From assembly GCF_041381155.1 (NCBI RefSeq), contig NC_091136.1, positions 48,970,284-49,034,283 on the forward strand: DNA of 64,000 bases, written 5' to 3'. Below, piece after piece: positions 931 through 54,531 of this stretch (its first letter is position 1; each line of letters starts with the position of its first letter). The notes beneath the pieces were generated by a model. The model saw only the letters and a list, made by a program, of their open reading frames with translations, did not search any database and had not been told where the DNA came from. The DNA is from Argopecten irradians (lineage: Eukaryota; Mollusca; Bivalvia; Pectinida; Pectinidae). The position numbers and the translations under genes were made by a program.

Positions 931-936
931 GTCATT

Positions 937-13700: not shown

Positions 13701-16700
13701 ATGGTATGCCTCAAATTCAACAGGTCAGTAACAATAGTTGATTGTATGTCAATCTATGAAGTCCATATGTTCTGTTACTTTGGACCAAAATGGAGTACAG
13801 AAATGATAACAGGATAACAGGATGCTTAAAAATTAACAAAATAAACATTGATAATTCAGTCATTATCACTAAGGCATCACTAAGTAACACAAAAATGCTT
13901 TAAATAGATGGCATGTCAGACAATTCTATCTACTGGTGTGCTAGAATTGCAGCAATGCTTTGCCAATACTAGGTAGTCTGCAATAGTTAAGATATTGAAA
14001 AAAGTGTTTCCTCGATAAAAATAGTAGAATCTATTGCTTTTAATTGTATGTTATAATCATCCCCAGCAACAAACAAACAAGCAGAAAAATTATGATAAAA
14101 ACGATTATAAAATAGAAGGCTGTTTTAGGAAGTCCAGACTTAAAAATCAGGGTTGTTAACTACTTGAACAAATTTTATTTTACAGCATATGATTGCCCAG
14201 ACCATGAGGACAGTTCGTTTCTGTAAAAGTCAACATTTAGGTATGTTTCAATTGTGCATTTTCTTAATTATTCAAGTTTTCTAGCATAAGATATTTAATC
14301 TTCTGTCTAATTAAGCTCTAACTTAAAACGTAATCTTTGTCATTCACAAATAGTAAAATAATTGTGACATTATATTTCCTCTGATTTCCCAAATGAACCT
14401 ACGTGATATATAAAACTCTATAAGGTTTCATTGCAATCATTAGAGATTTTATTGCCAGGTCTTCTAGTCCTGCCTGACATAGACTGGTGTTCTTGATGTA
14501 ATTTGAGGTTTGGTAGTTATAATATTGTTAATTTTCCTATCTAAACTATCTACAGATTTGGAAGCACCCACCTCATTAAAGTGTTCGTCAGAAGTTATTG
14601 AGTACATCAGGTATGTATCCATGTATTCTCCCTATCCAATAGGAGGCATGCTAATCTTCTAACCCTTAAATTATAAAATGTTTCATGTATTTTCTTCAAT
14701 AAGTACTTTCATTTTTAGCTCACCTGGTCCGAAGGACCAAGGTGAGCTTATGCCATACCGTGGCGTCCGTCCGTCGTCCGTCGTCCGTCGTCCGTCGTCC
14801 GTCGTCCGTCCGTCCGTCCGTCCGTCAACAATCGACTTCTTCTCCATAACCGCTGGTCGGATTTCAACAAAATTTGGCTGGTAGCATCCTTATGGGCTAC
14901 TAACTGAAAATTGTACAAATGATGGGGCTGACCCCCCAGGGGCCTGAGGGGCGGGGCCAAAAGGGGTCAATTTGGCTATTTCCATATAAACGACTTCTTC
15001 TCTGAAACCAAGCATGGGATAGCACCCATAATGCAATGGTAGCATCCTTATAGGGTGGGGATTCAAAATTGTACAAATGATGGGGCTGACCCCCCGGGGG
15101 CCTGAGGGGCGGGGTCAAATGGGGTCCATTTGGCTATTTCCATATAAACGACTTCTTCTCTGAAACCAAGCATGGGATAGCACCCATAATGCAATGGTAG
15201 CATCCTTATAGGGTGGGGATTCAAAATTGTACAAATGATGGGGCTGACCCCCCGGGGGCCTGAGGGGCGGGGTCAAATGGGGTCAATTTGGCTATTTCCA
15301 TATAAACGACTTCTTCTCTGAAACTAAGCATGAGATAGCACTCATAATGCAATGGTAGTATCGTTATAGGGTAGGGATTAAAAATTGTACAAATGATGTG
15401 GCTGACCCCCCGGGGGCCTGAGGGGCGGGGTCAAAAGGGGTCAATTTGGCTATTTCCATATAAACGACTTCTTCTCTGAAACCAAGCATGGGATAGCACC
15501 CATAATGCAATGGTAGCATCCTTATAGGGTGGGGATTCAAAATTGTACAAATGATGGGGCTGACCCCCGGGGGCCTGAGGGGCGGGGTCAAATGGGGTCA
15601 ATTTGGCTATTTCCATATAAACGACTTCTTCTCTGAAACTAAGCATGAGATAGCACTCATAATGCAATGGTAGTATCTTTATAGGTTGGGGATTCAAAAT
15701 TGTACAAATGATGTGGCTGACCCCCGGGGGGCCTGAGGGGCGGGGTCAAAAGGGGCCAATTTGGCTATTTCCATATAAACGACTTCTTCTCTGAAACTAA
15801 GCATGGTATAGCACCCATAATGCAATGGTAGCATCTTTATAGGGTGGGGATTCAAAATTGTGCAAATGATGGGGCTGACCCCCAGGGGGCCTGAGGGGCG
15901 GGGTCGAACGGGGTCGAACGTGGCCAATTTGGCTATTTCAATATAAACGACTTCTTCTCTGAAACTAAGCACGGTATAGCACCCATAATACAATGGTAGT
16001 ATCCTTATAGTGTGGGAATTCAAAATTGTGCAAATGATAGGGCTGACCCCCCGGGGGCCTGAGGGGCGGGGTCAAAAGTGGTCAATTTCCATATAAATGA
16101 CTTTTTCTCTGCAACTTAACATGGGATTACGCTCATAATGCAATGGTTACATCCTTATAGGGTTTGGATTCAAAATTTTGCAAATGATGGGGCTGACCCC
16201 CTGGGGGCCTGAAGGGTGGGGTCAAAAGGGGTTAATTTAGCTATTTCCATATAAACGACTTCTTCTCTGCAACTAAGAATGGAAGAGCACTTATAATGCA
16301 ATGGTAGCATCCTTATAGGGTTGGGATTTGAAATTGTACAAATGATAGGGCTGACCCCCGGGGTCTTAGACGGCAATAGATGCGAGGTCAAAAGGTCAAT
16401 TAGGCTGCTATTTTCATATAAATTACTTTGTCTCTGAACCTATGTATTGGATAGCATATTTGTATGGTATCAATAGCATCATTGTATGGTTGTGATTCAA
16501 AATTAAACTTTGGGAGTCAATTTTGCTTATTTTTCTAATTGTCTGAGTCTTGTGATAATTACTAACAAAAAACCAGGTGAGCGATACAGGCCCTCTGGGC
16601 CTCTTGTTTTATTTTCATTATATTCTATTCATTAACAATGAGAGTATTTCTCTTTGTCATTAAACAAAATCTGCTTCCTGGAATTCTATCACCACAACAT

Positions 16701-17600
16701 GGTAACAAGTTATCAGCAGGTATTCTATCAACACAACATGAAAACAAGTTATCAGCAGGCTATTCTATCAACACAACATGATAACAAGTTATCAGCAGGC
16801 TATTCTATCAACACAACATGATAACAAGTTATCAGCAGGCTATTCTATCAACACAACATGGTAACAAGTTATCAGCAGGCTATTCTATCAACACAACATG
16901 GTAACAAGTTATCAGCAGGCTATTCTATCAACACAACATGATAACAAGTTATCAGCAGGCTATTCTATCAACACAACATGATAACAAGTTATCAGCAGGC
17001 TATTCTATCAACACAACATGGTAACAAGTTATCAGCAGGCTATTCTATCAACACAACATGGTAACAAGTTATCAGCAGGCTATTCTATCAACACAACATG
17101 GTAACAAGTTATCAGCAGGCTATTCTATCAACACAACATGGTAACAAGTTATCAGCAGGCTATTCTATCAACACAACATGATAACAAGTTATCAGCAGGC
17201 TATTCTATCAACACAACATGATAACAAGTTATCAGCAGGCTATTCTATCAACACAACATGGTAACAAGTTATCAGCAGGCTATTCTATCAACACAACATG
17301 ATAACAAGTTATCAGCAGGCTATTCTATCAACACAACATGAAAACAAGTTATCAGCAGGCTATTCTATCAACACAACATGATAACAAGTTATCAGCAGGC
17401 TATTCCGTTTTTGTCTATTATTAATATAGTTACATGTATCTCTCTTATTATTTTATGAGTGAAACAAATAACGTCCCATTGTAAAGTACAAGTACGTGTA
17501 CTAATATAAAACTGTTTGGTGTTTCAGGAACCTCAATGTGATTGACAACCAAAGATTACTTACACAGTTCTCATACAAGTTAGAGCCACGTAGAACTTGA
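4755..17600 (+). CDS. RAPGEF4: EPAC-type Rap guanine nucleotide exchange factor, 3' 19 exons (5' partial)
   Basis: cAMP-activated exchange factor that loads Rap GTPases with GTP. Exons: 4755-4831, 5256-5323, 5791-5869, 6040-6152, 6762-6847, 7582-7660, 7819-7972, 8285-8379, 8780-8907, 9205-9351, 10536-10633, 11234-11359, 11658-11836, 12265-12355, 12937-13075, 13549-13613, 14186-14240, 14556-14610, 17528-17600. Phases agree throughout, giving 634 residues and TGA at 17598. Order in this fragment: second cyclic-nucleotide domain (1-112, phosphate-binding cassette [14 protein letters not shown] at 37-50), REM (112-250), basic linker (250-292), RA-like domain (293-374), CDC25 catalytic domain (375-634, with [11 protein letters not shown] and FTHEGNKT). 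The Lys in FGKLAL, where PKA has Glu, is typical of EPAC. The sequence is closer to EPAC2 than EPAC1. The exon before 4755 (ending one base into a codon) was not found. Several introns hold mobile elements. Confidence 0.95.
6857..7464 (+). repeat. Duplicated intron segment, copy 2 (acceptor lost)
   Basis: Second copy of the 3873-4751 segment, shorter by internal deletions. It begins about ten bases after the splice donor of exon 6762-6847. Where copy 1 continues tttctttcag into the exon, this copy reads tttcattaaa, so the acceptor AG is absent and no duplicated exon follows. Confidence 0.8.
10669..10811. repeat. Inverted-repeat element in EPAC intron
   Basis: Ends are attacagagttatctgcc (10669) and ggcagataactctgtaat (to about 10810), perfect inverted repeats of about 18 nt. 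The interior also has partly complementary ctaggta / tacctac. About 143 bp, no coding capacity; a MITE is likely. Confidence 0.8.
10908..11075. mobile_element. MITE-like repeat, copy 1
   Basis: Begins tacagtgaaacacggttata and continues with gggaccaacaaaac and gaaccttgac-gggaata. The same order occurs at 12715-12890. The cagtgaaac...ggttataac start resembles Tc1/mariner-class or related DNA-transposon ends. The right end is uncertain. Confidence 0.6.
11477..11515. repeat. Poly-C run followed by (CA)n
   Basis: About 15 C at 11477-11491 followed by a short CA-rich run. Simple sequence inside an EPAC intron. Confidence 0.8.
12715..12890. mobile_element. MITE-like repeat, copy 2
   Basis: Begins tacagtaaaacatggttata and is collinear with 10908-11075 (gggaaccagcaaaatcac, aaaccttgattgggaata, catgaat). 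It lies in another EPAC intron. Divergence suggests independent old insertions of one family. Confidence 0.6.
14717..16606 (+). mobile_element. Composite hairpin-ended element, family A (pearl/Helentron-like)
   Basis: The 5' end after a T run is a hairpin, agctcacctggtcc-gaa-ggaccaaggtgagct (14717-14748). Then comes a CCGTCGTCCGTC-type simple repeat (about 14763-14827). About ten ~158 bp core units follow, each with a GC-rich block gacccccc-gggggcc. The 3' end has ccaggtgagc, the inverse of the first stem, then the hairpin aggccctctgggcct and ctcttg at 16601-16606, followed by Ts. No protein is encoded. The layout fits non-autonomous Helentron or pearl-type elements; the class assignment is inference. 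Confidence 0.8.
16681..17405. repeat. 40-bp tandem repeat array (about 18 copies)
   Basis: Unit of 40 bp, tattctatcaacacaacatg plus rtaacaagttatcagcaggc, almost invariant except at one A/G position (ataacaag, gtaacaag, aaaacaag). It lies in the last EPAC intron, ending about 120 bp before the terminal exon at 17528. Confidence 0.97.
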
Positions 17601-19319
17601 CAGTTACTAGGGGGGTAAAATAATGGACTACATAACTATCTGGGCACTGGTCACACTTTATTTGTCCTTGGTTACCTCATGTACTAGGACCTAAAAGTTC
17701 ACTGAGATCGGACATGGTCCAGTCCACCAACCTTTGGTGATTTACATAACGGTACCTGATAAAATGTGATACTAGTTAACCGACCTCAAAGTGTGAAAAA
17801 GCTGTGTTCTGGTTACCATGTGGCAGCCTTCAAAGATGGTCAGGCCTGGCAAAGACAGGTCCTTAAAAGATGCAATTATGACTATTATGTGAAAAATATG
17901 TGCTCAATGCAATATTCCATTGACTAGGAGGGAGTCCATGCTCCTGTTAACAAAGACATGGGGAAATGCTATTGGCCAAAAGTTGTATGTCTCCTGACTC
18001 GTACAGAGGTAAAAGTCCTGTACTCTTGTATAAATGTTAAGTATGATTGGTATGAATGGGGAAGAATGTGAGGATATGAAAAATGAATGTTTTCCTTGAT
18101 GTAGTATTATTTAATTGCTGGAAATCACAAAGATAAGAGAGAGAGATTTCAGAACAAATCAAGATATCAAATTTATTTGTTAAAATGTTTTATTTCTGAT
18201 GTGTTATTTTATTTCAATACCAGAAAACATTTAAATCAATTGATTGATTGATGGAGCTTAACATCCTTACTTCCCGTTATAACCGAGCCTATCAAGGACA
18301 CCACCTGTAAACTTGCATTACGGAGTGGGGCATATGTACAATTTGGAATTATTATTTGGTAATCAGTTGTAGTGTATCAAAATATAGATATCTTGATTCT
18401 AGCTCACTTTTCTTTTCAAAAAACTTACTGGTCACTTCAGACATTCAGGTTACCTGATATAACATCACAAAGGGAAATTACTTTGGCACATCAAAATGTC
18501 TTTACATTTCAGCTCACCACCCCAGCAAAGGGCAAGTGAACTATATTGTGTTATGGCAATTTTATGAAAATTTGCTGGTCATAGGTGCAATCATGGAATA
18601 GAGATTGGCAAGTCTATGAAAAAAAATACCTTGACTCCACTATTTATATCGACAAATAAAGCTAAGTTATAGAGATTTATCCTGGTTTGTATTGGTAAGT
18701 GTATGTGGGGATGACGAAATTACATAGTGGGTGAAATATGTAATCTCCCCAAGACAAGTTGTAAACTATACACGATTCTTCCATTCTAATTATCCATTTG
18801 CAAGTATAAATGTTTTCTAATTACGATTGCAATCTTGATATGAATTAAAAGAAATGAAAGATTATTTGATGACTAGCTATCTTCATATTATTCCAGAAAG
18901 AGAATTTCCTCCTAAGTAAAGCTTTTGATTGTCTCTATATATATTACATGTAAACATATAGATATTGTCTATTGACTGATGCATACTATTTCATATGTTG
19001 TATTTAAGTTTGTATTCTTTATGTGATACCAATATACGTTTTCTTGTGATAGTTATATAAACTTTTAGTGTTGTTAGGCTGGTTTTTTTTGTTTTTTATT
19101 TAATCAGTTTATGACATTCCATTCGTTAATTCTATCTAGATATGTTATACAATTGAATCTTACCCACTTCATTATACAACTATCTGAATCAAGATTGTAA
19201 TCTCTTATAATTTTGATTCTTTACTTATGAAGATATCTTAGATATCTTATTTTTATAAAATCAGAATTCAGAAGTAGTTTAATCAACATAAAATAGCATA
19301 ACTGAAGTATTGGATTTTT
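17601..19319 (+). other. EPAC 3' UTR and flank
   Basis: Follows the EPAC stop codon. AT-rich, no further reading frame. An AATAAA at 18655-18660 with GT-rich sequence downstream is a plausible polyadenylation signal, which would give a 3' UTR of about 1.1 kb. No other feature recognised. Confidence 0.5.
18655..18660 (+). terminator. Candidate polyadenylation signal for EPAC
   Basis: AATAAA hexamer about 1055 bp after the stop, followed within 40-60 bp by a GT-rich stretch (ggtaagtgtatgtgggg). Other hexamers cannot be excluded without transcript data. Confidence 0.4.
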
Positions 19320-20387
19320 AGCATGGTGGGCTATGCAAATTGCCTTTTGTCTGTGGTCCGTCTTTTAACAATTCTTGTTACCACTATTTCTCAGAAAGCA
19401 CTGAAGCGATCTTTTTTTAAATTTCATATGTAGGTTTCCCTAGGGCCCTAGTTGTGTATATTACATATGGGGACCAATCGGTCAACAAGATGGACGCCAG
19501 ACAGCCATCTGCCATCGTGGATTTTGATAGTTAAAAAGTTTGTTACAGCTATTTCTCAGAAAGTACTGAAGGGATCTTTCTAAAATTTCAAATGCAGGTT
19601 CCTTTAGGGACCTTGTTGTGCATATTGCATTTTGGGACCAATCGGTCAACAAGATGGCTGACCAGCCGCCATCTTGGATTTTGGTAGTTAAAATTTATTA
19701 TCGCTATTTCTCAGAAAGTACTGAAGGAATCTTTCTCAAATTTCATATGCAGGTTTCCCTTAGACCCTAGTGCATGTTACATTTTGGGATAAATCAGTTA
19801 ACAAGATGGCCGAATTGATTTTGATAGTTAAAGTTTGTTACCGCTATTTCTTAAATAGGACTGAAGAGATCTGTCTCAAATTTCATGTGCAGATTCCCCT
19901 TAGCCCCCTAATCTTGCATATTGGGACTGATAGGTGAACAAGATGGCCGACTGGCCGCCATCTTGGATATTGATAGTTGAGGATTGTTACCGTTATTTCT
20001 CAGAAAGGACTGAAGTGATCTCTTCCAAATTTTTTATGTAGGTTCCCATCTTGGAATTTGGTAATTGAAATTTGTTACCGCTATTTCTCAGAATGTTTCA
20101 CTGAAAGGATCTGTCTTAAGTTTCTTGTGCAGGGTCCCCTAGAGCCCTTGTTATGCATATTGCATTTTAAGACTGATTGTGACCAAGATGGCGAACAGGT
20201 CGCTATCTTGGATTTTGACAATTGAAGTTTGTTATCGCTATTTCTCAGAAAGTACTGAAGCAATCTGTCTCAAATTTTATGTTGAGAATGTTTGAAAAAG
20301 TTTGAAAAACAAAGAAAAGATCCCTCTTTCCAATGGCAGAAATAGATCATTCTTTGGTGGGCGCCAAGATCACTCTGGGATCTCTTG
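19320..20387 (+). mobile_element. Composite hairpin-ended element, family C
   Basis: The 5' end after tttttagc carries ggtgggct, a damaged form of the hairpin seen intact at 30371-30399. Core units of about 170 bp repeat gctatttctcagaaagtact, aaatttcatatgcagg and gccgccatcttgg. The 3' end is ttggtgggcgccaag-atc-actctgg-gat-ctcttg at 20387. Several canonical YY1-type ccgccatcttgg sites occur. No coding capacity. Confidence 0.75.
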
Positions 20388-21185
20388 TTTAAATACACAA
20401 ATTTATTTTCACATTTTTTTTTAAAAGATATAAAACTAGTGACACAAAACATTGGAGTTGTTCAGTGAGAGAGTGGCCTAAAAATCAAACCTTATTGTAT
20501 AGAACACATTTCCCTAAATCTATCTGTTTAATGTTTATTGTATCATTTTAAACCTACAAAATTAATTGGTATAGAAAATTTACAGATATATCCAGATTCC
20601 TACTTCATTTACACTTTATTTATAAACCTTTAAATGACACAAAAATCTTGTAAAAACCAATATATTTTCATGCTGAACAGTTCAGAATGGTTTAGATTCC
20701 AGATTTTATCTTTATCCAGATAGGTTTTGTTTAAAGGGCCTGACGTACAATTGTACAATAATTTACTTAATTCTATTAATTGAAATTGAATTATGCGCAG
20801 ACAAAAGAATCACACATGAAAATATGTTGGTACTTGTATAAAGTTGAATTTCTACAAAAATGTGTGTATAGTTAAACATCTCCAAACTTAAAATGAGATA
20901 TTACGCTGTTTTGATGACAATTTCTAATGCAACTTATTTGGTTCAGTATAATTTTGGATTTCTTAGTTCTAGTCATTATAAGATAATTAAAGAATACTTT
21001 CAGTTACAGACAGTTTCATTAAATCTATAAAAGTCTACAAAATTGCTGTTACATCGAAATCACTGTGAAGGAGATCACTATGACATATCATTGTACTGTT
21101 GGTTGATGACAATGTTGTTGTTGAAGCGATTTTTTAAAAATAAACGTCGCAATATTTATTTGTATCATGTGTTATAGTAATTTTT
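20388..21185. other. AT-rich spacer, nothing recognised
   Basis: Between two composite elements. No exon, RNA gene or repeat unit recognised. Confidence 0.5.
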
Positions 21186-23152
21186 AGGTCATCTGACCCG
21201 CAGGATCAGGATGACTTATTGTCATCATGCACCATCCGTCGTCGTCCGCCGTGCGTAAATTTTTCATTCAAATGACTTCTACTCAATAACCGAAAGGCCC
21301 AGGGTACCTTCTACTCAATAACCGAAAGGCCCAGGGTACTGATATTGGGCCTGTGTCATGCTGGGATGAAGGGCTACCAAATTTTTTCAAATGAATGACC
21401 TTGACCTTCATTTAAGTTCACAAGGGTCAAAAAGGCAAAAATCCTTTAAACAACTTCTTGTAAATAACTAAGAGGCCTAGAGACCTGATATTGGGCCCCT
21501 GACATGCTGGGATGAAAGACTATCAAGTTTGTTCGAATTAATGACCTTGATATTCATTCAAGGTCACAGGTGTAAAAATGCTAAAATATTTAAACGTCTT
21601 CTTCTCATTCAAGTCAAGGGGTCAATTAGGCTAAAATCATTAAACGTCTTCTTTTCAACAACCAACAGGCTCAGGGTTCTCATATTGGGCCTGCAACATG
21701 CTGGGATGAAGGGCTATCAAGTTTGTTCAAATGAATGACCTTGACCTTCATTCAAGGTCACAGGGGTCAAATAAGCTTATATCTTTAAACGACTTCTTCT
21801 TAAGAACTAGAAGGCCCATGGTACTGATATTGGGCCTGTAGCATGCTGGGATGAAAGGCTACCAAGTTTGTTCAAATGAATGACCTTTACCTTCATTTAA
21901 GGTCACAGGGGTCAAATAGGCTAAAATCTTTAAGCAACTTCTTCTCAAGAACCAGAAGGCCCAGGGTACTGATATTGGGCATGTAGCATGCTGGGATGAA
22001 GGGCTACCAAGTTTGTTCAAATGAATGACCTTGACTTTCATTCAAGGTCACAGGGGTCAATTAGGCTAAAATCATTAAACGTCTTCTTTTCAACAACCAA
22101 CAGGCTCAGGGTTCTCATATTGGGCCTGCAACATGCTGGGATGAAGGGCTATCAAGTTTGTTCAAATGAATGACCTTGACCTTCATTCAAGGTCACATGG
22201 GTCAAATAAGCTTAAATCTTTAAAAGACTTCTTCTCAAGAACCAAAAGGCACATGGTACTGATATTGGGCCTGTAGCATGCTGGGATAAAAGGCTACCAA
22301 GTTTGTTCAAATGAATGACCTTGACCTTCATTTAAGGTCACAGGGGTCAAATAGGCTAAAATCTTTACACGACTTCTTGTGAATAACTAAGAGGCCTAGA
22401 GACCTGATATTGGGCCCCTGACATGCTGGGATGAAGAGCTATAAAGTTTGTTCAAATGAATGACCTTGATCTTCATTCAAGTTCACAGGGGTCAAAAAAG
22501 CTAAAATATTGAAACGACCTCTTCTCATTAACCAGAAGGCCCAGGGAACTGATATTGGGCATGAAGCATTCTGGGATGAAGGGCTACCAAGTTTTTTCAA
22601 ATGAATGACTTTGACCTTCATTCAAGGTCACAGGTGTCAAATAGGCTAAAATCTTTAAATGACTTCTTCTCAAGAACCGAAAGGCCCAGGATACTCATAT
22701 TGGGCCTGCAGCATGCTGGGATGAAGGGCTACCATGTTTGTTCAAATGAATGACCTTGACTTTCATTCAAGGTCACAGGGGTCAAATAGGCTAAAATCTT
22801 TAAAAGACCTCTTGAGAATAACTAGGAGGCATAGATAACTGATATTGGGCCTGTGACCTGCTGGGATGAAGAGCTACCAAGTTTGTTCAAATCAATGACA
22901 TTGACCTTTATCCAAGGTCACAGGGGTCAAATAGGCTTAAATCTTAAAATAACTTTTTTGTGAATAACTAAAAGGCCTAGAGACCTGATATTGGGCGTAT
23001 GACATGCTGGGATGAAGGGCTACCATATTTGTTTTAAAAAATGACCTTGATCTTCATTTCAGATCACAGGGGTCAAAATGGCTAAAATCTTTAAATAACT
23101 ATGTTGTATTGTACCAATAGTCAGATAACCCTTTAGGCCCATGGGCCTCTTG
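21186..23152 (+). mobile_element. Composite hairpin-ended element, family B
   Basis: 5' hairpin aggtcatctgaccc-gca-ggatcaggatgactt, preceded by Ts and followed by a short CCGTCGTCGTCC-like run. About twelve ~146 bp core units repeat tgaccttgaccttcattc, aaggtcacaggggtcaaa, aacgacttcttctca, ggcccagggtact and gcatgctgggatgaaggg. The 3' end is gtcagataacc, then the hairpin aggcccatgggcct and ctcttg at 23152. Each core carries TCAAGGTCA-type half-sites in both orientations. No coding capacity. Confidence 0.85.
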
Positions 23153-23284
23153 GTTTTTTTTACTTGTCGATAAACAAGAAAAATGCATTATCCCTTCTCT
23201 GCATATAAGAGTTATCTGCCCTTGTGGGTAAATAGTTTAACATAATTAGTTTGTGTGCAACAATGCAGGGGTTTTGAGATCCCC

Positions 23285-23427
23285 AAAACGATGTGGATTA
23301 AGTACAATTAACCGTCAATTAGTCCTTCTGGTGATTGTGAAGTCATCTTTCGACATGAATTTTGTGACGTCACAATCTCTGAAAGGTGGGACTAATCGAC
23401 GGTAAATTGTACATTACCCATCGTTTT
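23285..23427. repeat. Inverted-repeat element (MITE-like)
   Basis: Ends aaaacgatg / catcgtttt, with inner arms gtacaattaaccgtc and gacggtaaattgtac. The centre is a short palindrome around ttgtgacgtcacaa. Total about 143 bp; no coding capacity. Confidence 0.8.
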
Positions 23428-23691
23428 CTCTTAAAAATATGACCTTTAGCTTGTAAAAACATGAAATCAAAATGAATACTTACATGCAATAACTAATAAC
23501 TCTGTATTAGCAAATACAAAATAACAATGAAATTGTGACCTGGTCAAACATTGTAGCCAACAGACAGCTTGATTGAGTAGAGTCTCTATCTAAAAGTCAT
23601 AGGGTTCCAGGTTTTTGACAAATTCTAGTCATTATGTAACCCTGGTCAATAATAGCTGTAATATACACTCGACAAGAGTGAACTTCTTTTT

Positions 23692-23755: not shown

Positions 23756-23824
23756 AGTGATTTTATGATAAATCCTGCACCCTGTTACAATTATATGCCC
23801 TCTCCAATAACAAAATTAATACTG

Positions 23825-26549: not shown

Positions 26550-29500
26550 TTACTCTTCGATTTCGTATCCTTTTTTCATGAACACCTTCGGCTTATATTT
26601 CCTCTTCTTGCTGTTAGAACAAAAATAATCATAATGTAAGTTGATATAAGAAACTAAAATAAAATTTTAACACAATTCATTCATGGTATTTGTTTATGGT
26701 TTATATTAAAACATCACATTTTCAGTCTTACCTTGCTTCAAGTCTTGGCTCTATCACATTTCTCTTCTGTAAACTTTTGAATCTGTCCACTAATAGGTGT
26801 CCTTCTGGCTGTAAGATCAGACACAACATTAGGATATGGTAAGATAAATAGGAGTACATGTATGGTGTATTATTAAAGAAAGAGATGTGTGTAGATGAGG
26901 GGTTTCTGACACTGCTGAATTAATCCATCACTTGATTTCGAAAAGGAATTTTTAAGCTATAATATAAACAATTTATTTCAATTTTTTCCCCAAATATAGA
27001 CCAATCACACAACAAAAACTGAATATGTTACTAAATGAAATACATTCTATTAAAGTATATTTCGACACAAATTAAAGATAAACTAGAATTATGTCAGTAT
27101 GACATTAAAAGCCACTGCAACAACAATTATTTTATTTTTGCTTCATGTTAAGTGCTGAAATTAGAAAAAAAAACGTTTGAAGTGTACTCATAAACCGAAC
27201 AAGTGTTATGCACATTGTCTGCAACTATGGGCCAAAATTCATGATTTTTTTCAATTTTTCAAGCATTATGCTGTAGCTACCATGATCTTCATTTGTATGA
27301 ATAAGAGCAGAAATTCGACAAATCTTTATCTAAATAATATTATCATATTGAGATAAATAGTATATATCGTGCCTATTAATTATAGGTGTACTTTTTTACA
27401 TTTAAATGACTTCGATATTTTCCCAAGTATTCAACATATGAACACAAACTAAAATTAGACAATGTTTTGAAATAAAAGGCCCATGGGCCTTAATGGTCAT
27501 CTGACTATTGGCACAATACCACACCTCAAAGGATATAGTAGTGGCAAACAATTAAGGCATTAAAAAAGAAGTTTTTTAATAGAAGAAGTTTAGGTTCTGA
27601 TATATTTGATGAATTAGACCATGACCCTTGATCCCCACCATGCTACAAATTCATTATCCAGTCTCTAACTTCAGTAACTTAGACTCTAAGCTTCTAAGTA
27701 ATTTATAAGAAGTTTTTTTTAAAGATTTTAGCCTGTTTGATCCCTGTGACCTTGAGTGAAGATCAAGGTCAATCACTTGAACAAACTTGGTAACTAAAGG
27801 TGAGTATCGCCTACAATTTTAACTATTGCAATACTATTGCTATCAGGGAAAACACTATTGTGATAGTTTAACTATTGCATACTTCAATTGCAATAGTATT
27901 GAGATAGTATTGCATTCTGAATTATATTAAAATCCAGTCGATGAATTGGCCGCCATGACGTATATCTAGCCCAGTATTGGTTTAAAGTTACTTCCCTTTA
28001 CCTGCTAACGTCAGTACCAACTCAAACGCAATGAAGATCATGATTGAGAACATTGTCGGTGTTTGCATTTTGATTAAATATCATGGAAAAAGTAACATTT
28101 TATCATACTGTTAGTTTGTTTGTCAATCCTATGTGAGTACATGATTTTAGTTCAAGTTACAGAAAATATCTGACAATTGAAACTATTGATTGGTTGGCAT
28201 ACTATCAGCGATTGTTATCGACTTTTTGAAATTGACATCGATTGATTGAGTTGAGAGGCATGCAATCGCAATATATCGGTAGTTCGATGTATTGTTACAC
28301 TCCTATTGGTAACCCTTCATCCCACCATATCACAGACTCAATATCAGGTATCTAGGCCTCTTAATTATTCACAAAAAGTTGTTTAAAGATTTTTGCCTAT
28401 TTGACCCCTGTGACCTTGAATGAAGATCAAGGTCATTCATTTGAACAAACTTGGTATCCCTTAATCCCAGCATGTCACAAGCCCAATATCAGGTCTCTAG
28501 GTCTCTTAGTTATTCACAAGAGGTTGTTTAAAGATATTAGCTTTTTTGACCCCTGTGACCTTGAATGAAGGTCAAGGTCATTGATTTGAACAAACTTGGC
28601 AGACATTCATCACAGCATGCTACATGCCAAATATCAGTACCCTTTGCCTTTCGGTTATTGAGAAGAAGTTGTTTAAATGAAAAATTTGAAGCAAAATCTC
28701 CAATTTTCTGTGTAAGCGAAGCGGAAGTTGCGCCTGCATCACAGATGATTATGACAGCCATGCTTATCATCTATCCCATGAATGACAACAGAGTATTTCC
28801 TAATGGTCATCCGGGTTAATGTAACGAATCTGTAACAACAAAATGCGGTCAAAAACGAAAGCGCTGCTGATAAAGTTATAACAACAAAGTGAAAGAAGAT
28901 AATGACATACAGGTTGGGCACTGACAGTTTGTTAATTTGATATTAAACCTTGTTCAAGATATAATAGTGATGATAAAAATAATGACATGACAAAATCCAA
29001 CCAGTAAGACCAACAGTATCTATCGTTTCACACGTAACACATGAGGTAACAAGAGATCCCAGAGGGATCTTGGCGCCCACCAAAAAATGATCTATGTCTG
29101 ACAATGGAAAGAGGGATATTTTCCCTGCTTTTCAAACTTTTTCAAACACACTACATATAAAATTTGAGACAGATCGCTATAGTACTTTCTAAGAAATAGT
29201 GGTAACAAACTTCAACAATGAAATCTAAGATGGCAGCCGGTTGGCCATCTTGTTTACCGATCAGTCCCGAAAGGCATTATGCATAAGTCCTAAAAGGTAC
29301 TATGCACAACTAGGGTACAAGGGGAACCTATGCATGGAGTTTGAGAAAGATCCCTTCAGTACTTTCTGACAAATAGCGATAACAAACTTTAACTATCAAA
29401 ATCCAAGATGGCCGTCGGTCGGCCATCTTGTTTACCGATCGGTCCCAAAATACAATATGCACAACTAGGATGCTAGGGGAACCTGTATATGAAATTTGAG

Positions 29501-32500
29501 AAAGATCCCTTCAGCACTTTTTGAAAAATAGCGGTAACAAACTTTAACTATCAAAATCCAAGATGGCAGCCTGTTGGCCATCTCTTTCACCGATCGGTCC
29601 CAAAATACAATATGCACAACTAGGATGCTAGGGGAACCTGTATATGAAATTTGAGAAAGATCCCTTCAGCACTTTTTGAAAAATAGCGGTAACAAACTTT
29701 AACTATCAAAATCCAAGATGGCAGCCTGTTGGCCATCTCTTTCACCGATCGGTCCCAAAATGCAAAATGCACAACTAGGGTCCTAGGGGAACCTATATAT
29801 GAAATCTGAGAAAGATCCCTTCAGTACTTTTTGAGAAATAGCGGTACCAAGTTTTAACTATCAAAATCCAAGATGACCGCCTCGGCCATCTTGTTCACGA
29901 TCAGTCCCAAAATGCAATATGCACAACTAGGGTCCTAGGGGAACCTGTATATGAAATTTGAGAAAGTTCCTTTGAGCACTTTTTGAGATATAGCGGTAAC
30001 AAACTTTAACTATCAAAATCCAAGATGGCCGCCTGTCAGCCATCTTGTTCACCGATCGGTCCCAAAATCCATTATGCACAACTAGAGTCCTAGGGGAACC
30101 TGTATATGAAATTTGAGAAAAATCCCTTCAGCACTTTTTGAGAAATAGCGGTAACAAACTTTAACTATCAAAATCCAAGATGGCCGCCTGTCAGCCATCT
30201 TGTAGACCGATCGGTCCCAAAATGCAATATGCACAACTAGGGTCCTAGGAGAAGCTACATATGAAATTTGAGAAAGATATCTTCAGTACTTCCTGAGAAA
30301 TAGCGGTAACAAGAATTGTTAACAGACGGCAGGACGGACGGACGACAGACCACGGACGAAAGGCAATTTGAACAGCCCACCATCTAATGATGGTGGGCTA
30401 AAAAACAAACAAGAGGCCCATGGACCTTAACGGTCATCTGACTATTTGCACAATACAACATAGTCATTTAAAGATTTTGGCCATTTTGACCCCTGTGATC
30501 TTGAATGAAGATCAAGGTCATTGATTTGAAAAAAACTTGGTAGCTCTTCATCCCAGCAGGTCACAGGCCAAATATCAGGTCTCTAGGCTCCTAGTTATTC
30601 TCAAGAAGTCATTTAAAGATTTTAGCCTATTTGACCCCTGTGACCTTGAATGAAGGTCAAGGTCATTCATTTGAACAAACTTGGTAGCCCTTCATCCCAG
30701 CATGCTGCAGGCTCAATATGAGTATCCTGAGCCTTTAGGCTCTTCAAAAGAAGCCGTTTAAATTTTTTTAGCCTATTTGACCCCTGTGACCTTGAATGAA
30801 GGTCAAGGTCATTGATTTGAACAAACTTGGTAGCCCTTTATCCCAGCATGCTGCAGGCCCAATATGAGTATCCTGGGCCTTTTGATTCTTGAGAAGAAGT
30901 CATTTTTTAGACCCCTGTGACCTTGGATAAAGGTCAATGTCACAGTATTGCCAACCTCTGATGAGGTCAAATCGGGTGATCACCCTTAAAAAAACGGGTG
31001 AAAGGGTACAAAAAAGGGTCATGTGCGAAACAACATTTTAGTGTAATTTTTAACACTTTTTAAAAGCCTTAAATATGCATGTATTTATTATTTTCATATT
31101 GTTATTCAATAATATTATGATGTTTTTTGTAATAATATAATTAATATATGATAATTAATAAAAATATCATAAATTTAAAAACAAAAAAAATTAATAAAAT
31201 CCGGATTTTTTGTTCTACACATGTCCGGTTTCATTATTATCTTTGACTAAACAAAATGGCGGCCATTATGATTGGCTTGCATGCCTCCGGCAACAGGATA
31301 AAATTCACGTTGACTATGTTTTATTCATGTGAGTAAATCTTTGTCTGAGATCACAAGTGTTTGTGCTTTTGTAGAATTTTGAAAATATTATTTCTGATTT
31401 TGAACAGTATTAATTGGCCATGTCTAATTTTGCTCTGGCTAAAAACGATCATGGACATCGTGATGCATGACTGAATAGAGTAATTGCTACAATTTCACAC
31501 CTTTATTTAAGTTTGTGTAAACACAAACATAGCTACCTGCGTTATACAAGGAGCTGATATGAGTCTTAAGCCCTGAGTAAAATTGCGCTAATGGCTTGAT
31601 CTGGAGTAATTTTTGTGAGTTTTTTTGACACTTTGGTCAAAGTGCTGAAAACCGGGTTATTTGATGACCCGTTGGGTCAATCGGGTTATGCATTCTAAAA
31701 TGTCTAAAAAAACGGGTCAACCCGGAGAAATTTTTTTAACGGTCATCTGACTATTTGCACAATACAACATAGTCATTTAAAGATTTTGGCCATTTTGACC
31801 CCTGTGATCTTGAATGAAGATCAAGGTCATTGATTTGAAAAAACTTGGTAGCTCTTCATCCCAGCAGGTCACAGGCCCAATATCAGTTCTCTATGCCTCC
31901 TATTTATTCTCAAGAGGTCTTTTAAAATTTTTAGCCTATTTGACCCCTGTGACCTTAAATGAAGGTCAAGGTCATTCATTTGAACAAACATGGTAGCCCT
32001 TCATCCCAGCATGCTGCAGGCCCAATATGAGTATCCTGAGCCTTTCGTTCTTAAAAAGAAGTTGTTTAAAGGTTTTAGCCTATTTGACCCCTGTGACATT
32101 AAATGAAAGTCAAGGTCATTCATTTGAACAAACATGGTAGCCCTTCATCCCAGCATGCTGCAGGCCCAATATGAGTATCCTGAGCCTTTCGTTCTTGAAA
32201 AGAAGTTGTTTAAAGGTTTTAGCCTATTTGACCCCTGTGACCTTGAATGAAAGTCAAGGTCATTCATTTGAACAAACTTGCAATTGGTAGCCCTTTATCC
32301 CAGCATGCTGCAAGCCCAATATGAGTATCCTGGGCCTTTCGGTTCTTGAGAAGAAGTCATTTAAAGATTTTAGCCTATTTGACACATGTGACCTTGAATG
32401 AAGGTCAAAGTCATTCATTTGAAGAAACTTGGTAGCCCTTCATCCCAGAATGCTTCATGCCCAATATCAGTTCCCTGGGCCTTCTGGTTAATGAGAAGAA

Positions 32501-35500
32501 GTCGTTTCAATATTTTAGCTTTTTTGACCCCTGTGAACTTGAATGAAGATCAAGGTCTTTGATTTGAACAAACTTGATAGCCCTTTATCCAAGCATGTCA
32601 GGGGCCCAATATCAGGTCTCTAGGCCTCTTGGTTATTTACAAGAAGTTGTTTAAAGGATTTTAACCTTTTTGACCCCTGTGACCTTAAATGAAGGTCAAG
32701 GTAATTCATTTGAACAATCTTGGTAGCCCTTCATCCAAGCATGCTACAAGCCAAATATCAGCACCCTGGGCCTTTCAGTTATTGAGAAGAAGTCCTTTGA
32801 ATGAAATGTTTAAGTAGGCGGACGGCGGACGGCGCACGACGACGGACGGTGCATGATGACAATAGGTCATCCTGACCCTTCGGGTCAGATGACCTAAAAA
32901 GTTACTCAGAAAGTCTTCATCAGAACTGGGCAAGGGGTTCCAGAATAAAATAAAATAATGTATGAACAGATGTTCTTGTAGTAAAAACAAAAAATAAATT
33001 ATGAGAATGGACAAAAAATAAATTATGAGAATGGACATGTTGACTAAATGCAGTCTTGGAGTTGTATGATTTTGCAATAGGCCTATGACTTAGTGACAAA
33101 CTGTTACAGAATTTCCTGATTTATCTAGCAGCACAAATGAAAAGAATAGAACAAAGTTGTGTTACAAATTGAATTAGAGAGACATAAGGAATATGTACAT
33201 CTAATGATTTAATTCCTAAAATTCAAGTAATTCCATTTACAAGAAAATGTAGTAACTGCAGAAATTCATTTAAAATAATTGACTAATTTAATGATTCGGA
33301 CCTGTGCCTAGTTGTTTAAAAAAATATTCCAGACCCCTGTGGAATGCATTGTGACATTGACACAAGTACATACCGGGTATTACTACAAAACAGTGTTAAC
33401 TCCAGTGTACAAGGGTGTTAAAGTTTAAATGTCTTACCTTTAACAGTCTAAGTGATCCAGGAAGCTCATCACTTAACTTCAGTTCAATTTCTGCTTCTTC
33501 AAATCTGAACAAGGTCAAGGTCACTTAACTAATATGACATGATTTTGTTCAGGACATTTGAGATCCTGTTTTTACAAAAACATCTAACAGTAGCAAGAAT
33601 CAACAGTTTATGTCATCTGGACTTACATGTATTATATATAATGCTTGAAGTTACACATCCTTTTCAAACATACACTGACTGATAAAATTGGTAATTATCT
33701 TGCATATTAAATAATACATGGATTACTTAAATTTGACCATGATTCTTCAGGTAATTAACTGCAACAATGTATTCAGAAAATGCTAGGATAATTTGTAGAT
33801 TTTTGAGATTGGACAACAAGTTATCTTAATGTTTATCACTTCTATGAGAAAGTGTTGTAAAGGATACTTGATTTTCCCCAGCTTCCTCGTGTTCATGCCC
33901 GACTTTTCATACTTTTCTTTCTTCAGTCTCGCCCTCTGTGATAAATCCTTCTCACGGGCTTTTATTTCAGCTTTAATTGTTTTTAACCTGCAACGAGAAA
34001 TACACAAAAATTGATGTGCAAATATACCTGTGTTGTAAGTATAGCATGTATAAGGATATGACAGGTTTTGGACTAACTTTTGGTAGTCTTGGGATTAACC
34101 ACTTAGCCAACATGACCTGAAGATGGAGAGCTATTGATTGAACACCAGACAAATTAACCACTTAGTCAAAAGTTATTGATTAAATATCGGGCACCTTAAA
34201 TCATCCATGGCCCTGACTAAACTTCATTCATTTAAGGAAAACATGGCCCATAAATGAAAGAATCATGATTTTGTTTACTGAAAAGCTCAAATACTACCTT
34301 GACCTCTATAATATGTATTTTCTGAGGAGCATCATCATCCCTGACCTGATTGTTGTATCTGATAATTTCTTACCTGAATATATCCTTTTCTCGTGTTTTA
34401 GCAAATTTCTCTTTCATTTTACCATGTTCCTGAAAGAGAACAGTATTACCAGTATACTGTATATATGAACATACCAGAAAGAACATTATTCACAGATATT
34501 ATAGAAACTCCTATACAGAAAGAAAATATTAAATTAATGTGAACATAGTGTATTTGTTTTTGGTTTTTTAAATTCTCATTAATGATAAGAAATCACATTG
34601 ACTTATGTGTCACTGATAATGATAGCAACGTTTTTGTATTTACAGAAATCCACAGTAATACTTGTTTTCATACCTTGTCTTTAATATTTTTCTCCTTGTT
34701 TCTCTGAACTCTGGTTTTCTTGTCCTCCCTGCGGACTGGAGGAGCTACAGACAGTTTTTCCAGCTCCTCCTCTGTGAATTCGACCCTCTCCTCATCCTCC
34801 TGATTCAGTCCTGCGGACATCTCTGCTTGAAGATTCGCCTGTAAATGAGTCGTATATATATAACACAAGCCAAAGGAGAGATAACTGAAGATTCACTATT
34901 AATGGGTCATATATTACAATACAGAGGAATTGCTTCAAGATTTGCCTGTTTATAAAAAAATAATCAGGAGTAATTACAGTGCTTGAAGCTAAGTAAAAAA
35001 TACCTTTCCAAGATCGTCTTTGTTTGACCTAAACTAACAAGCCCATTAAATGATAAAGCATCGCATTATCTTGATAAAACAAAAATTAATTTGCAAACTT
35101 TCTTTGTTTTGTTTCATTTTTCTGTGTTTTAAGGAAGCATACAGGAATATATTTGGGTATTGGTATTAAGTGACCTACCTCTAGCTCCTCTGCAGACACT
35201 TTCCTAAACTGGGCCTCAACAGCATTGTAGAGTTTCCTTTCCTTCCTTTCACGCTTCACCTCTATATCATGAGCTTTAGCTAGTAAATTCTGAGGATAAA
35301 AAACAATTCTATTTCTTATGTATAACGCCTTTGCAAATGGCCAAAATCAGTCACATGGCAATAAGCATTTTCAAGAAACTGTGGTAAGGACAAGTTTTTT
35401 CCCTGTTTTCATCAATATTGTGACAATATTTGGTCACATTGTAATAAGCATTTTTCAACACACTGTGGTAATTAGGACATGTTTTTTTCCTTTACCTGTA

Positions 35501-42843: not shown

Positions 42844-51108
<8,265 letters not shown>

Positions 51109-51322
51109 CAAATATAAATACATTTTGTATACAGGAAAACAAATTGTGTGTTGGACAGCCACAGATGTATTACATTAATCTTCCCTGTATCAGTGATTGG
51201 ATCAGGGGAAACGACATAGTCAATTATAGTAACACTGACTTATTGAAACAATCATGGTGGATACGTGTGCTGGGAATACAGGTTGATAGATATAGGTTCC
51301 ATTGACATGCTCTTTAGTATTG
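51109..51322 (+). other. PTGR2 3' UTR start
   Basis: Sequence after the PTGR2 stop, no other feature seen. No AATAAA directly after the stop; an AATAAA at about 52046 is the nearest clear one, beyond the MITE at 51323. Confidence 0.4.
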
Positions 51323-51482
51323 ACAGTCAAACCTGCCTTTGTGACCACCTCTCTATAATGACCACCTTCTTGAAAGGTCACTTTCTCAAGGTCCTAAACA
51401 GTCAATTTCACCACAATTTGCCCTGTGTATAAAGACCATTTTCCTTTGTCTCTTTGGTGGATTTATAGGTAGGTTTGACTGT
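51323..51482. mobile_element. 160-bp MITE with terminal inverted repeats
   Basis: Ends acagtcaaacctgcctttg and (inverse) acagtcaaacctacctata. The interior has gtgtataaagacc. Lies in the PTGR2 3' region. The cagtcaaacct termini resemble Tc1/mariner-class MITEs. Confidence 0.75.
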
Positions 51483-52086
51483 ACACAGTATGGCTATGCA
51501 TGTCCATATGATATACAGTATAACCCCTCTAACTCGAACCCTCAAATACCCCCTATTCGTCGAGCTGGTCACACGGTCCCGACCGAGTCATTATATAATC
51601 TATGTAAAAAAAAAACCGGATAGCTCGAACAGCTATTCGCCCAATACCCTTCATTCCTCAAACAGACAAATGTCCCCGTTTCATCAAATACATGTACATA
51701 GTATTTACCTATGTATTTGTCGAACAGGTGTTCCGCCGGCCCTTGAGATATCTGTGTACATCCGCTATGCACAGGTTCCAACTGTGCACGTGAAACCGGA
51801 AGTCACTTTCTTATACCGTTTAGTGATTTAGTGACACCAACCTTTTAAAAAATAAGAGATACCTATCAGCGATGTTCTTCTGTAAATTAACAACAGTGAC
51901 ATTAAACAGTGATAAACACATTCGTTTTGTGTAAATTTCAAGCGGCGTATCATACAAACTCTTGCCTCGGCACGGTATTCTATGCATTTGATTGACTTTG
52001 GAAACTTCCGGAACAATACAATGCAATTCAGGTTTATATAGTCAATAAAAGAAAGTGTCGAAACAGATAACTTTTAGTACATTTTT

Positions 52087-54317
52087 AGGTCATCTGACCC
52101 GAAGGGTCAGGATGACCTATAGTCATCATGTTTCGTCCGTCGTCGTGCGCCGTGCGCCGTGCGCCGTGCGCCGTCCGCCGTGCGTTAACTTTTCACATTT
52201 TGAACTTCTTCTCAAGTTTGACCAGTGGGATTGAGCTGAAACTTACCTGAAATGATCCTGAGATGGTCCCGACAAAGTGTTGTTATTTTTCGGGTCGATC
52301 CGAAATCCAAGATGGTCCCGACAAAGTGTTGTTATTTTTCGGGTCGATCCGAAATCCAAGATGGCCGCCACAGGCGCCATCTTGAAAACACATTTTGAAC
52401 TTCTTCTCAAGTTCTACCGGTGCGATTTGGCTGAAACTTGCATGAAATGATCCTGACATGGTCCCGACAAAGTGTTGTTATTTTTCGGGTCGATCCGAAA
52501 TCCAAGATGGCCGCCACAGCCGCCATCTTGAAAACACATTTTAAACTTCTTCTCAAGTTCTACCGGTGCGATTTGGCTGAAACTTGCATGAAATGATCCT
52601 GACATGGTCCCGACAAAGTGTTGTTATTTTTCGGGTCGATCCGAAATCCAAGATGGCCGCCACAGGCGCCATCTTGAAAACACATTTTGAACTTCTTCTC
52701 AAGTTCTACCGGTGCGATTTGGCTGAAACTTGCATGAAATGATCCTGACATGGTCCCGACAAAGTGTTGTTATTTTTCGGGTCGATCCGAAATCCAAGAT
52801 GGCCGCCACAGCCGCCATCTTGAAAACACATTTTAAACTTCTTCTCAAGTTCTACCGGTGCGATTTGGCTGAAACTTGCATGAAATGATCCTGACATGGT
52901 CCCGACAAAGTGTTGTTATTATTCGGGTCGATCCGAAATCCAAGATGGCCGCCACAGGCGCCATCTTGAAAACACATTTTGAACTTTCTCAAGTTCTACC
53001 AGTGCGATTTCGCTGAAACTTGCATGAAATGATCCTGACATGGTCCCGACAAAGTGTTGTTATTTTTCGGGTCGATCCGAAATCCAAGATGGCCGCCAAA
53101 GCCGCCATCTTGAAAATACATTTTGAACTTCTTCTCAAGTTCTACCAGTGCGATTAGGCTGAAACTGGCATGAAATGATCCTGACATGGTCCCGACAAAG
53201 TGTTGTTATTTTTCGGGTCGATCCGAAATCCAAGATGGCCGCCAAAGCCGCCATCTTGAAAACACATTTTGAACTTCTTCTCAAGTTCTACCGGTGCGAT
53301 TAGGCTGAAACTTGCATGAAATGATCCTGACATGGTCCCGACAAAGTGTTGTTATTTTTCGGGTCGATCCGAAATCCAAGATGGCCGCCAAAGCCGCCAT
53401 CTTGAAAACACATTTTGAACTTCTTCTCAAGTTCTACCGGTGCGATTAGGCTGAAACTTGCATGAAATGATCCTGACATGGTCCCGACAAAGTGTTGTTA
53501 TTTTTCGGGTAGATTTGAAATCCAAGATGGCCGCCAAAGCCGCCATCTTGAAGACACATTTTGAACTTCTTCTCAAGTTCTACCGGTGCGATTTGACTGA
53601 AACTTGCATGAAATGATCCTGATATGGTCCCGACAAAGTGTTGTTATTTTTCGGGTCGATCCGAAATCCAAGATGGCCGCCACAGCCGCCATCTTGAAAA
53701 CACATTTTGAACTTCTTCTCAAGTTCTACCGGTGCGATTTGACTGAAACTTGCATGAAATGATCCTGACATGGTCCCGACAAAGTGTTGTTATTTTTCGG
53801 GTCGATCCGAAATCCAAGATGGCCGCCACAGCCGCCATCTTGAAAACACATTTTGAACTTCTTCTCAAGTTCTACCGGTGCGATTTGACTGAAACTTGCA
53901 TGAAATGATCCTGACATGGTCCCGACAAAGTGTTGTTATTTTTCAGGTCGATCCGAAATCCAAGATGGCCGCCACAGCCGCCATCTTGAAAACACATTTT
54001 GAACTTCTTCTCAAGTTCTACCGGTGCGATTTGGCTGAAACTTGCATGAAATGATCCTGACATGGTCCCGACAAAGTGTTGTTATTTTTCCGGTCGATCC
54101 GAAATCCAAGATGGCCGCCACAGCCGCCATCTTGAAAACACATTTTGAACTTCTTCTCAAGTTCTACCGTTGCGATTTGGCTGAAACTTGCATGAAATGA
54201 TCCTGACATAGGCCAGACAAAGTATTGTTACATCTCTGGTTGATCACAAATCGAAGATGGCTACCATGCCACTATATCTAATTAATTTCCTATATGTTAA
54301 GGCCCTTGGGCCTCTTG
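52087..54317 (+). mobile_element. Composite hairpin-ended element, family B ends with 146-bp YY1-motif core array
   Basis: 5' hairpin aggtcatctgacccgaagggtcaggatgacct, then a CGCCGTGCGCCGTG run. About fourteen highly uniform 146 bp units follow, to about 54210. Each has ccaagatggccgcc, a 3-4 base spacer and an inverse gccatcttg, followed by aacttcttctcaagttctac and tgatcctgacatggtc. The 3' end is gttaaggcccttgggcctcttg at 54317. The repeat gives antisense open frames of 63 residues that overlap every 146 bp and are artefacts. Confidence 0.88.
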
Positions 54318-54447
54318 TTTGAAATAAAATTTGTTGAAAGAAATTGAAAATGATCCTGACATGGTCCTGACAAAGTAACACCATATATAATTAATTTTAC
54401 TATTGCCAAGGTAGTCAGATGACCGTTAAGGCCCTTTGGGCCTCTTG
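54318..54447 (+). mobile_element. Second 3' end of the same family, joined head to tail
   Basis: Starts with 30-40 bp of unrelated or diverged sequence. Then come tgatcctgacatggtcctga (a core fragment) and a full 3' end, gtcagatgaccgttaaggccctttgggcctcttg. It has no 5' end of its own. Confidence 0.7.
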
Positions 54448-54450
54448 TTT

Positions 54451-54531
54451 AGGTCATCTGACCTGATGACCTATAGTCATCATGTTTCGTCCGTCGTCGT
54501 CCACCGTCCACCGTCCACCGTCCGCCTCTTG
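54451..54531 (+). mobile_element. 81-bp mini-element: 5' end fused to CCTCTTG
   Basis: Begins three Ts after the end of the previous element: aggtcatctgacc-tgatgacct, then tagtcatcatgtttcgtccg, a ccaccgtccaccgtcc run, and directly cctcttgttt. It holds the 5' hairpin (shortened), the simple repeat and the final bases of the 3' end, with no core array and no 3' hairpin. Confidence 0.75.

What the first reader, a model, noticed from the sequence alone, without database searches (positions are those of the whole stretch)
14717..54531. Three terminal families of one modular hairpin-ended element class with a shared 3' cap
Seen: each complete copy begins after Ts with a ~30 nt hairpin. The three versions start agctcacctgg (A), aggtcatctgac (B) and agcccacc (C). 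A CCGTCG-type simple repeat and a tandem core array follow. The inverse of the 5' stem then reappears near the 3' end (ccaggtgagc, gtcagatgacc, ggtgggcg), followed by a hairpin and ctcttgttt. A and B share the 3' hairpin aggccc..gggcct; C uses gatcccctctgggatc-type sequence in the same place. Known: subterminal inverted repeats, a 3' hairpin and a central array are typical of Helentron-associated and oyster pearl-like elements. Inference: one replication machinery reads the common 3' cap while family identity sits in the paired subterminal motifs.
Basis: partly seen in the sequence, partly recalled or inferred. Interest (0 to 1): 0.75.

Follow-up and report, generated by a model that had tools for sequence, protein, structure and literature searches.

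The report
Rolling-circle transposons sharing one cap
These are several families of small rolling-circle jumping genes that have matched family-specific ends, share one kind of 3' tip, and often land exactly against the ends of one another, and for one family the likely parent element with the replication-protein gene was found in the same genome.

Summary
The pattern is real. A, B and C, and a fourth family D, are non-autonomous Helentrons (HINEs): 5' hairpin, CGTC-type microsatellite, tandem core, 3' subterminal repeat, hairpin, CTTG. A is the published scallop CvA/pearl element: a published CvA primer matches exactly. In 16 of 16 elements with both ends in hand the ends were of one family.

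New here: (1) Nested insertions with known empty sites (two with both junctions, two with the right junction only) give TTAG...CTTG to within one T, a target like NTTD^TT and no duplication. (2) The 3' tip plus flank, CTTG^TT, is itself such a target. Precise CTTG|TTAG joins lie at resident ends in 19 of 33 sampled cases, against 3 of 149 random CTTGTT sites. (3) Families pair at random at such joins: 27 of 68 same-family, 28.5 expected. So they are not mainly concatemers. (4) A Rep-PIF1 element of about 17 kb has A-type ends; 9 of 11 copies examined carry the A 5' hairpin.

The parts
14715..16606 (+). Family A HINE (CvA-like), TTAG to CTTG; core 158 bp x 9.4 at 14879-16363; 3' subTIR and cap 16574-16606
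   Evidence: flanks ATTTTT|AG and CTTG|TTTTATTTT
14717..14748 (+). A 5' hairpin, stem with a 1-nt bulge on the 3' arm
19318..20387 (+). Family C copy with damaged 5' hairpin; core about 140-164 bp; cap gatcactctgggatctCTTG
21184..23152 (+). Family B HINE with 145-bp core; 3' flank CTTG|G instead of CTTG|T
29050..30401 (-). Family C HINE, perfect 11-bp 5' stem, 155-bp core, cap gatccctctgggatctCTTG
30410..32897 (-). Family B HINE with 145-bp core, interrupted at about 30945-31735 (by reading); the C copy starts 8 bases beyond its 3' end
43575..45628 (+). Family B HINE with 161-bp core, unrelated to the 145- and 146-bp cores
52085..54447 (+). Family B HINE with 146-bp core (x 13.4); two caps, the first (CTTG 54314-54317) without subTIR, the second with
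54449..54531 (+). B stub: 5' end, microsatellite, CTTG; begins one T after the CTTG of the previous copy
62323..62360 (-). Family D-like 3' end (CTCATGTGACT...GGCCCGTGGGCCTCTTG)
27476..27505 (-). Decayed B 3' end (subTIR and hairpin, CTTG lost)

Best explanation
A to D are internally deleted, rolling-circle (Helentron-type) transposons. Shown from sequence: each element runs TTAG (5' hairpin)...(3' subTIR, hairpin) CTTG, goes into a site like NTTD^TT, without duplication where both junctions could be read, and has 5' and 3' subterminal repeats of one family. Inferred: a Rep nuclease (HUH type by class) binds the paired subterminal motifs, which set family identity, nicks before TTAG and stops at the hairpin before CTTG^T. 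The same enzyme nicks targets of the same shape. A resident CTTG^TT tip is therefore both a termination site and a ready target, so copies of different families come to lie against one another and build mixed head-to-tail arrays. Shown for family A: the likely parent is an element of about 17 kb that carries A ends, its own core array, and Rep and PIF1 helicase matches in one open frame of 2805 aa. HINE A would arise from such elements by loss of the middle (inferred).
For: Ends and target: L052 and L053 are two different B elements in the same core position (host CATATTTTATATAAAT becomes CATATTTTT|AG...CTTG|TATATAAAT). Right junctions only: a B copy in the C376 parent (host T7 in C337, T4 after CTTG) and a C copy in the C626 parent (host T5 in three other copies, T2 after CTTG). 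Left junction only: a C copy in the C11 parent (host T8 in C337, T5 before AG). B 5' flanks: TTTTT 63, TTATT 10, TTGTT 4 of 94 distinct, with T at -6 in only 5 of the 63. 3' flanks: T at +1 in 66 and at +2 in 58 of 68 distinct. Hotspot: 19 of 33 precise joins at resident ends against 3 of 149 random CTTGTT sites, odds ratio 66, p 4e-14. Family independence: 27 of 68 same-family, 28.5 expected. Parent: PF14214 104 matches; PF05970 in the same 2805-aa frame at C11; A-type 3' ends in both copies read, similarity stopping just after CTTGTT; A-type 5' hairpin in 9 of 11 copies; the array-leader junction 7.4-13.2 kb upstream of a Rep match in 14 of 20 loci.
Against: Cross-recognition by one enzyme is inferred from insertion sites, not shown. 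Family C joins A/B/D ends only once as right partner and once as left partner (L041); its abundance was not measured. It cannot be told which of two abutting copies came second: a copy landing just before a resident 5' end (NTTD^TTAG) gives the same join. The insertion position is fixed only to within one T, and only two insertions show both junctions with a known empty site. One nested case (L003/L049) needs a local TT where the host core consensus reads CC, so it is inconclusive. Joins with a single T between CTTGTT and AG (9 of 100 rows), which include the window's own 54449 join, do not fit NTTD^ strictly. 14 of 33 joins are at CTTGTT with no recognisable element. L080 has a GACGG flank and L085 no 5' hairpin.
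Confidence: 0.7

Rival explanations
1. The head-to-tail joins are rolling-circle concatemers made by read-through of one element's 3' end.
For: Some same-family runs with regular spacing exist (C11:23717861-23722834, C5:48927542/48929831). Read-through and tandem copies are known for Helitrons.
Against: Concatemers predict a same-family excess; observed 27 of 68 against 28.5 expected. 20 of 32 joins with A on the right have B on the left before merging.
Confidence: 0.12
2. Simple T-rich target preference: copies abut only because TT sites are common and CTTGTT is one of them.
For: 14 of 33 precise joins are at CTTGTT without a recognisable element. The main host targets are T-runs.
Against: HINE tips are 3 of 149 random CTTGTT sites but hold 19 of 33 of the sampled insertions.
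Confidence: 0.13
3. Each family has its own Rep enzyme, and mixed joins arise by repair or template switching between nearby copies.
For: Several groups of Rep-bearing elements exist (grouped by me from scores, no tree). The paired subTIRs differ by family. C scarcely joins the others.
Against: Joins are exact to the base and family-independent for A, B and D. A, B and the few C and D copies seen lie in the same kind of T-run target.
Confidence: 0.25
4. Cut-and-paste TIR transposons or MITEs (the older reading of pearl/CvA).
For: Subterminal inverted repeats exist; CvA was classified as MITE-like.
Against: No target duplication in the two insertions with both junctions and a known empty site; asymmetric ends; parent element with Rep and PIF1 matches.
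Confidence: 0.02

Closest known systems
CvA / pearl family of bivalves (Gaffney et al. 2003, as cited in PMC5874043; not read directly)
   Same: Family A: a 21-nt primer designed on Chlamys farreri CvA (PMC5874043, passages) matches the A 3' end exactly; microsatellite and tandem core of about 156-158 bp
   Different: No autonomous partner or exact target was described in the passages I saw
Cg_HINE elements of Crassostrea gigas (PMC7492417, parts 1-3 of 7 read)
   Same: 5' subTIR, IR, GTCY-type microsatellite, core array, 3' subTIR, palindrome; TT targets; no TSD; related flanks around unrelated cores
   Different: Mixed-family joins at 3' tips, target like the 3' tip, and an autonomous partner are not in the parts read
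Helentrons, HINE and DINE-1 (PMC4067079, passages)
   Same: Anatomy, TT target, T's at the borders; HINEs as deletion derivatives of Rep-helicase elements. It notes distantly related Helitrons lying close to or directly next to one another in bat and maize and says the same might be seen with Helentrons
   Different: No base-exact count in the passages read; endonuclease domain not tested here
FoHeli / Helitron2 of Fusarium (PMC5148889, passages)
   Same: Asymmetric TIRs, hairpins, 3' end CTCCTGT in FoHeli3-5, close to CTCTTG-T here; one element 2 bp from another
   Different: Different insertion sites for FoHeli1 and 2 (TNAT/A); one example of an element 2 bp from another in the passages seen
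Canonical Helitrons (Helraiser, PMC4778049, passages) and IS91
   Same: 3' CTAG followed by T, hairpin as terminator, no TSD, circular intermediate
   Different: 5' TC and A^T target; paired subTIRs not mentioned in the passages seen. IS91's tetranucleotide target (CTTG or GTTC) is recalled and was not found

Membership tests
HINE / Helentron | Subterminal inverted repeats, 5' and 3' of one family | tested here: met
   16 of 16 both-ended elements
HINE / Helentron | Internal IR next to the 5' subTIR | tested here: met
   Folds; 10,327 A/B/D-type 5' hairpins genome-wide against 15 in control
HINE / Helentron | Palindrome near the 3' end | tested here: met
   5601 perfect B/D-type caps, control 0
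HINE / Helentron | Insertion at TT, no target duplication | tested here: met
   two insertions with both junctions and known empty site, others with one junction; exact to within one T
HINE / Helentron | Autonomous partner with Rep and helicase and the same ends | tested here: met
   Family A only; partners of B, C, D not found
HINE / Helentron | Endonuclease domain in the autonomous protein | not tested
   C11:11369000-11373500 was not fetched
HINE / Helentron | Rolling-circle transposition | not testable with these tools
   needs bench assay
CvA / pearl | Sequence identity of the end region to scallop CvA | tested here: met
   exact 21-nt primer match, (A only)
Canonical Helitron | 5' TC, 3' CTRR, A^T target | tested here: not met
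   TTAG...CTTG; A^T only in a minority (TTATT class 10 of 94 B flanks)
TIR/MITE transposon | Target site duplication | tested here: not met
   (two insertions with both junctions)

The most novel reading that the evidence does not exclude
One Rep reads the same short motif, NTTD^TT, for the 5' nick, the 3' stop and the target, so every resident tip CTTG^TT is a landing pad open to all families. This would make mixed head-to-tail arrays a built-in outcome and a route by which unrelated satellite-like cores are brought side by side.
Probability: 0.5. Interest if true: 0.7.

Novelty: new member of a known kind. Interest (0 to 1): 0.55.

Why it matters
Pearl/CvA-type elements spread satellite-like repeats through bivalve genomes, and I saw no published autonomous partner (search listings). 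A concrete parent element with its own core array says where the core arrays can come from and gives a protein to test. Tip-directed, family-blind insertion is a quantitative, testable rule for how rolling-circle transposons choose targets and build mixed arrays.

Tried and rejected
Concatemer origin of the joins was tested by family independence and rejected as the main source. A TSD model (target NTTDTT, TT duplicated) was rejected because hosts with four T's give five on the left and one on the right. At first I took the C-cap beside the C626 Rep element as the Rep element's insertion at a C tip. Comparing more copies showed the reverse: the C element sits inside the Rep element's leader. 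A conserved one-base bulge in every 5' hairpin does not hold: in the commonest form B and A1 have it on the 3' arm, A2 on the 5' arm, D has a 1x1 internal loop, and the complete C copy has none. Rows left out by hand before counting: 5 of the 100 rows (identical units of one 3.35-kb tandem); 27 of the 100 rows (repeats of flanks already entered), leaving 73, of which 68 distinct. A count of all A/B/D 3' ends and a C abundance count did not complete. Merging for one search was by hand: 7 of 48, 4 of 32 and 0 of 6 joins on unplaced contigs dropped, then joins within 13 kb merged unless their left families differed (86 to 68). Of the 41 zero-spacer rows in the first 100, 4 were not examined; L030 (cap score 0.47) was counted as no element. 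In one search, 19 shorter matches (query 143-389, 74-75%) and array-only matches were set aside from the 20 loci.
Full report
Setting. The window lies at G000:C3:48970284-49034283 of an unnamed 846-Mb genome. A published primer designed on scallop CvA matches the A element exactly, so the host is probably a scallop or close kin (inference).

Observation. The described features are present and far above chance in the window and in the genome. The genome holds 4427 exact B 5' dodecamers against 213 in the reversed control, 10,327 A/B/D-type 5' hairpins against 15 and 5601 perfect B/D caps against 0. The tool says such counts of repeats are lower bounds. The same B ends enclose three cores of 145, 161 and 146 bp that show no similarity to one another beyond 8-nt matches, so ends and core are separate modules. 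The A core shares about 40 bp at 81-82% with the 145- and 161-bp B cores, and the 146-bp B core shares 16 exact bases with the C core. Related flanks around unrelated cores are already described for Cg_HINE group 2.

Ends pair by family. I had both ends of 16 elements. Seven are in the window. Three are in L002/L003/L049, one each in L050, L052, L053 and L018, and two are autonomous copies (C11 and C626). All 16 have 5' and 3' subterminal motifs of the same family: A 4, B 9, C 2, D 1. Under random re-pairing of these ends the chance of that is about 8e-7 (my arithmetic: 4!9!2!/16!). The sample was not drawn at random; most fetched loci were chosen through B ends or through Rep. One C copy has a damaged 5' hairpin, the D copy reads TGAG at its start, and one B copy (L002) reads TAAG.

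Exact boundary. Insertions into sequences whose empty form is known settle the borders. L052 and L053 hold two different B elements at the same position of a resident 161-bp-core element. The host reads CATATTTTATATAAAT in sister monomers; both insertions give CATATTTTT|AG on the left and CTTG|TATATAAAT on the right. In the autonomous copies, a B insertion in C376 (host T7 in C337) leaves T4 on the right, and a C insertion in C626 (host T5 in L060, L062 and L066) leaves T2. Their left junctions were not compared. A C insertion in C11 shows the left side only: T5 where C337 has T8. All fit an element TTAG...CTTG placed three T's into the T-run, with no duplication in the two cases where both sides are seen. 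TAG...CTTGT placed one base further is equivalent. L051 shows a third right-hand junction of the L052 kind. L003/L049 is inconclusive.

Target. Of 94 distinct B 5' flanks (from 100 rows on C1), 63 end in TTTTT, 10 in TTATT and 4 in TTGTT. T is rare at -6 in the first class (5 of 63), so the run starts at a fixed place. After CTTG, T follows in 66 of 68 distinct cases and a second T in 58 of 68. Written without the element's own TT, targets are VTTT^TT or YTTR^TT. The element's 3' tip with its flank, CTTG^TT, has the same shape.

Tip-directed insertion. Precise joins CTTG|TTAG are frequent. The pattern with up to 12 spacer bases gave 583 against 37 in control, and 41 of the first 100 rows have no spacer. 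Of these 41, 22 lie at resident HINE ends, 15 at CTTGTT without a recognisable element, and 4 were not examined. The 22 comprise 16 with exact subTIR, one seen in L004, and 5 of the 20 fetched. After merging duplicates this is 19 against 14. Among 149 CTTGTT sites in 200 kb of systematically spaced sequence (20 loci) 3 are HINE tips, which gives an odds ratio of 66 and p 4e-14. The criterion for a decayed tip was slightly looser in the insertion set; scores are.

Family-blind. Joins with exact motifs on both sides number 86: 48 with B, 6 with D and 32 with A on the right. On chromosomes and after merging neighbours, 68 remain. 27 are same-family against 28.5 expected, permutation p 0.70. Concatemers would give an excess. 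Family C is rare at these joins: one case as right partner and one as left neighbour (L041). Without a C abundance count this cannot be weighed. Which neighbour came second is not known.

Parent element of family A. PF14214 (Helitron_like_N) matches 104 places and none of 14 control genomes. In one group the two copies read downstream (C11:11368984 and C626:23457) end in the A-type 3' end, CAGGTGAGCGATACAGGCCCTCTGGGCCT|CTTG. Their similarity stops right after CTTGTT, with CTTG at C11:11377269 and C626:31573. About 9.2 kb upstream of Rep in C11 lies the A-type 5' hairpin, followed by a CGTCC microsatellite and a 157-bp array of 5.7 units. No A cap was found on the same strand in the 6.3-kb stretch searched, which holds this 5' end and the 4.4 kb after it. 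The junction of that array with the leader occurs in 20 loci, 14 of them over its full length. 14 of the 20 lie 7.4-13.2 kb upstream of a Rep match on the same strand (distances are my comparison). Of 11 copies whose 5' end I looked for, 9 have the hairpin, one of them with a 2-nt deletion. One fetch did not reach it and one lacks it. One of the nine (L084, contig C932) has no Rep match listed, and L082 has the same flank as L076, so it is a duplicate. Seven of the eight distinct flanks are TTTTT or TTATT. Rep and PIF1 matches share one open frame of 2805 aa in C11, with DUF6570 before them. The stretch C11:11369000-11373500 was not fetched, so the endonuclease expected of Helentrons is untested.

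Mechanism. Shown: borders to within one T, target shape, family pairing in 16 elements, tip hotspot, family independence for A, B and D, and the likely parent of A. Inferred: that a Rep nuclease does the nicking, that one lineage serves several families, and that resident tips attract insertions because they look like the cut site plus hairpin. The hairpin of canonical Helitrons is a termination signal (PMC4778049, passages).

Literature. Anatomy and TT target are published (PMC4067079 and PMC7492417, read in part). PMC4067079 also says that distantly related Helitrons in bat and maize may lie directly next to one another and that Helentrons might do the same. I found no base-exact count and no autonomous partner of pearl/CvA in the listings, which cover open-licence papers only.

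Numbers were recounted.

Noticed in passing
G000:C1:9157081-9158215: 20 listed copies of the HINE cap with CTTG, mostly at 48-bp spacing: a satellite made of 3' tips alone
   Followed up: no
G000:C1:456929-457153: Four B 5' ends at 71-bp spacing: a small array of 5' tips
   Followed up: no
G000:C1:5414119-5431411: Six tandem units of about 3.35 kb, each with an A 5' end and an opposite-strand cap
   Followed up: no
window 52312-54261 and 29287-30312: Two otherwise largely unrelated cores (B 146 bp, C 155 bp) share AAGATGGCCG in the unit tested, in C also as its reverse complement; it resembles a YY1 site (name recalled)
   Followed up: partly
window 54294-54447; L053 1765-1895 on the reversed strand: Two B copies carry two caps about 130 bp apart, the inner one without subTIR, as if a new end had been added by read-through
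   Followed up: partly
L057 (G000:C13:39078490-39081490): Another Rep group has a Herpes_teg_N-type (protease-like) domain before DUF6570
   Followed up: no
window 267-933, 16683-17405, 23825-25363: Further tandem arrays with units of 60, 40 and 74 bp, not tied to these elements
   Followed up: no
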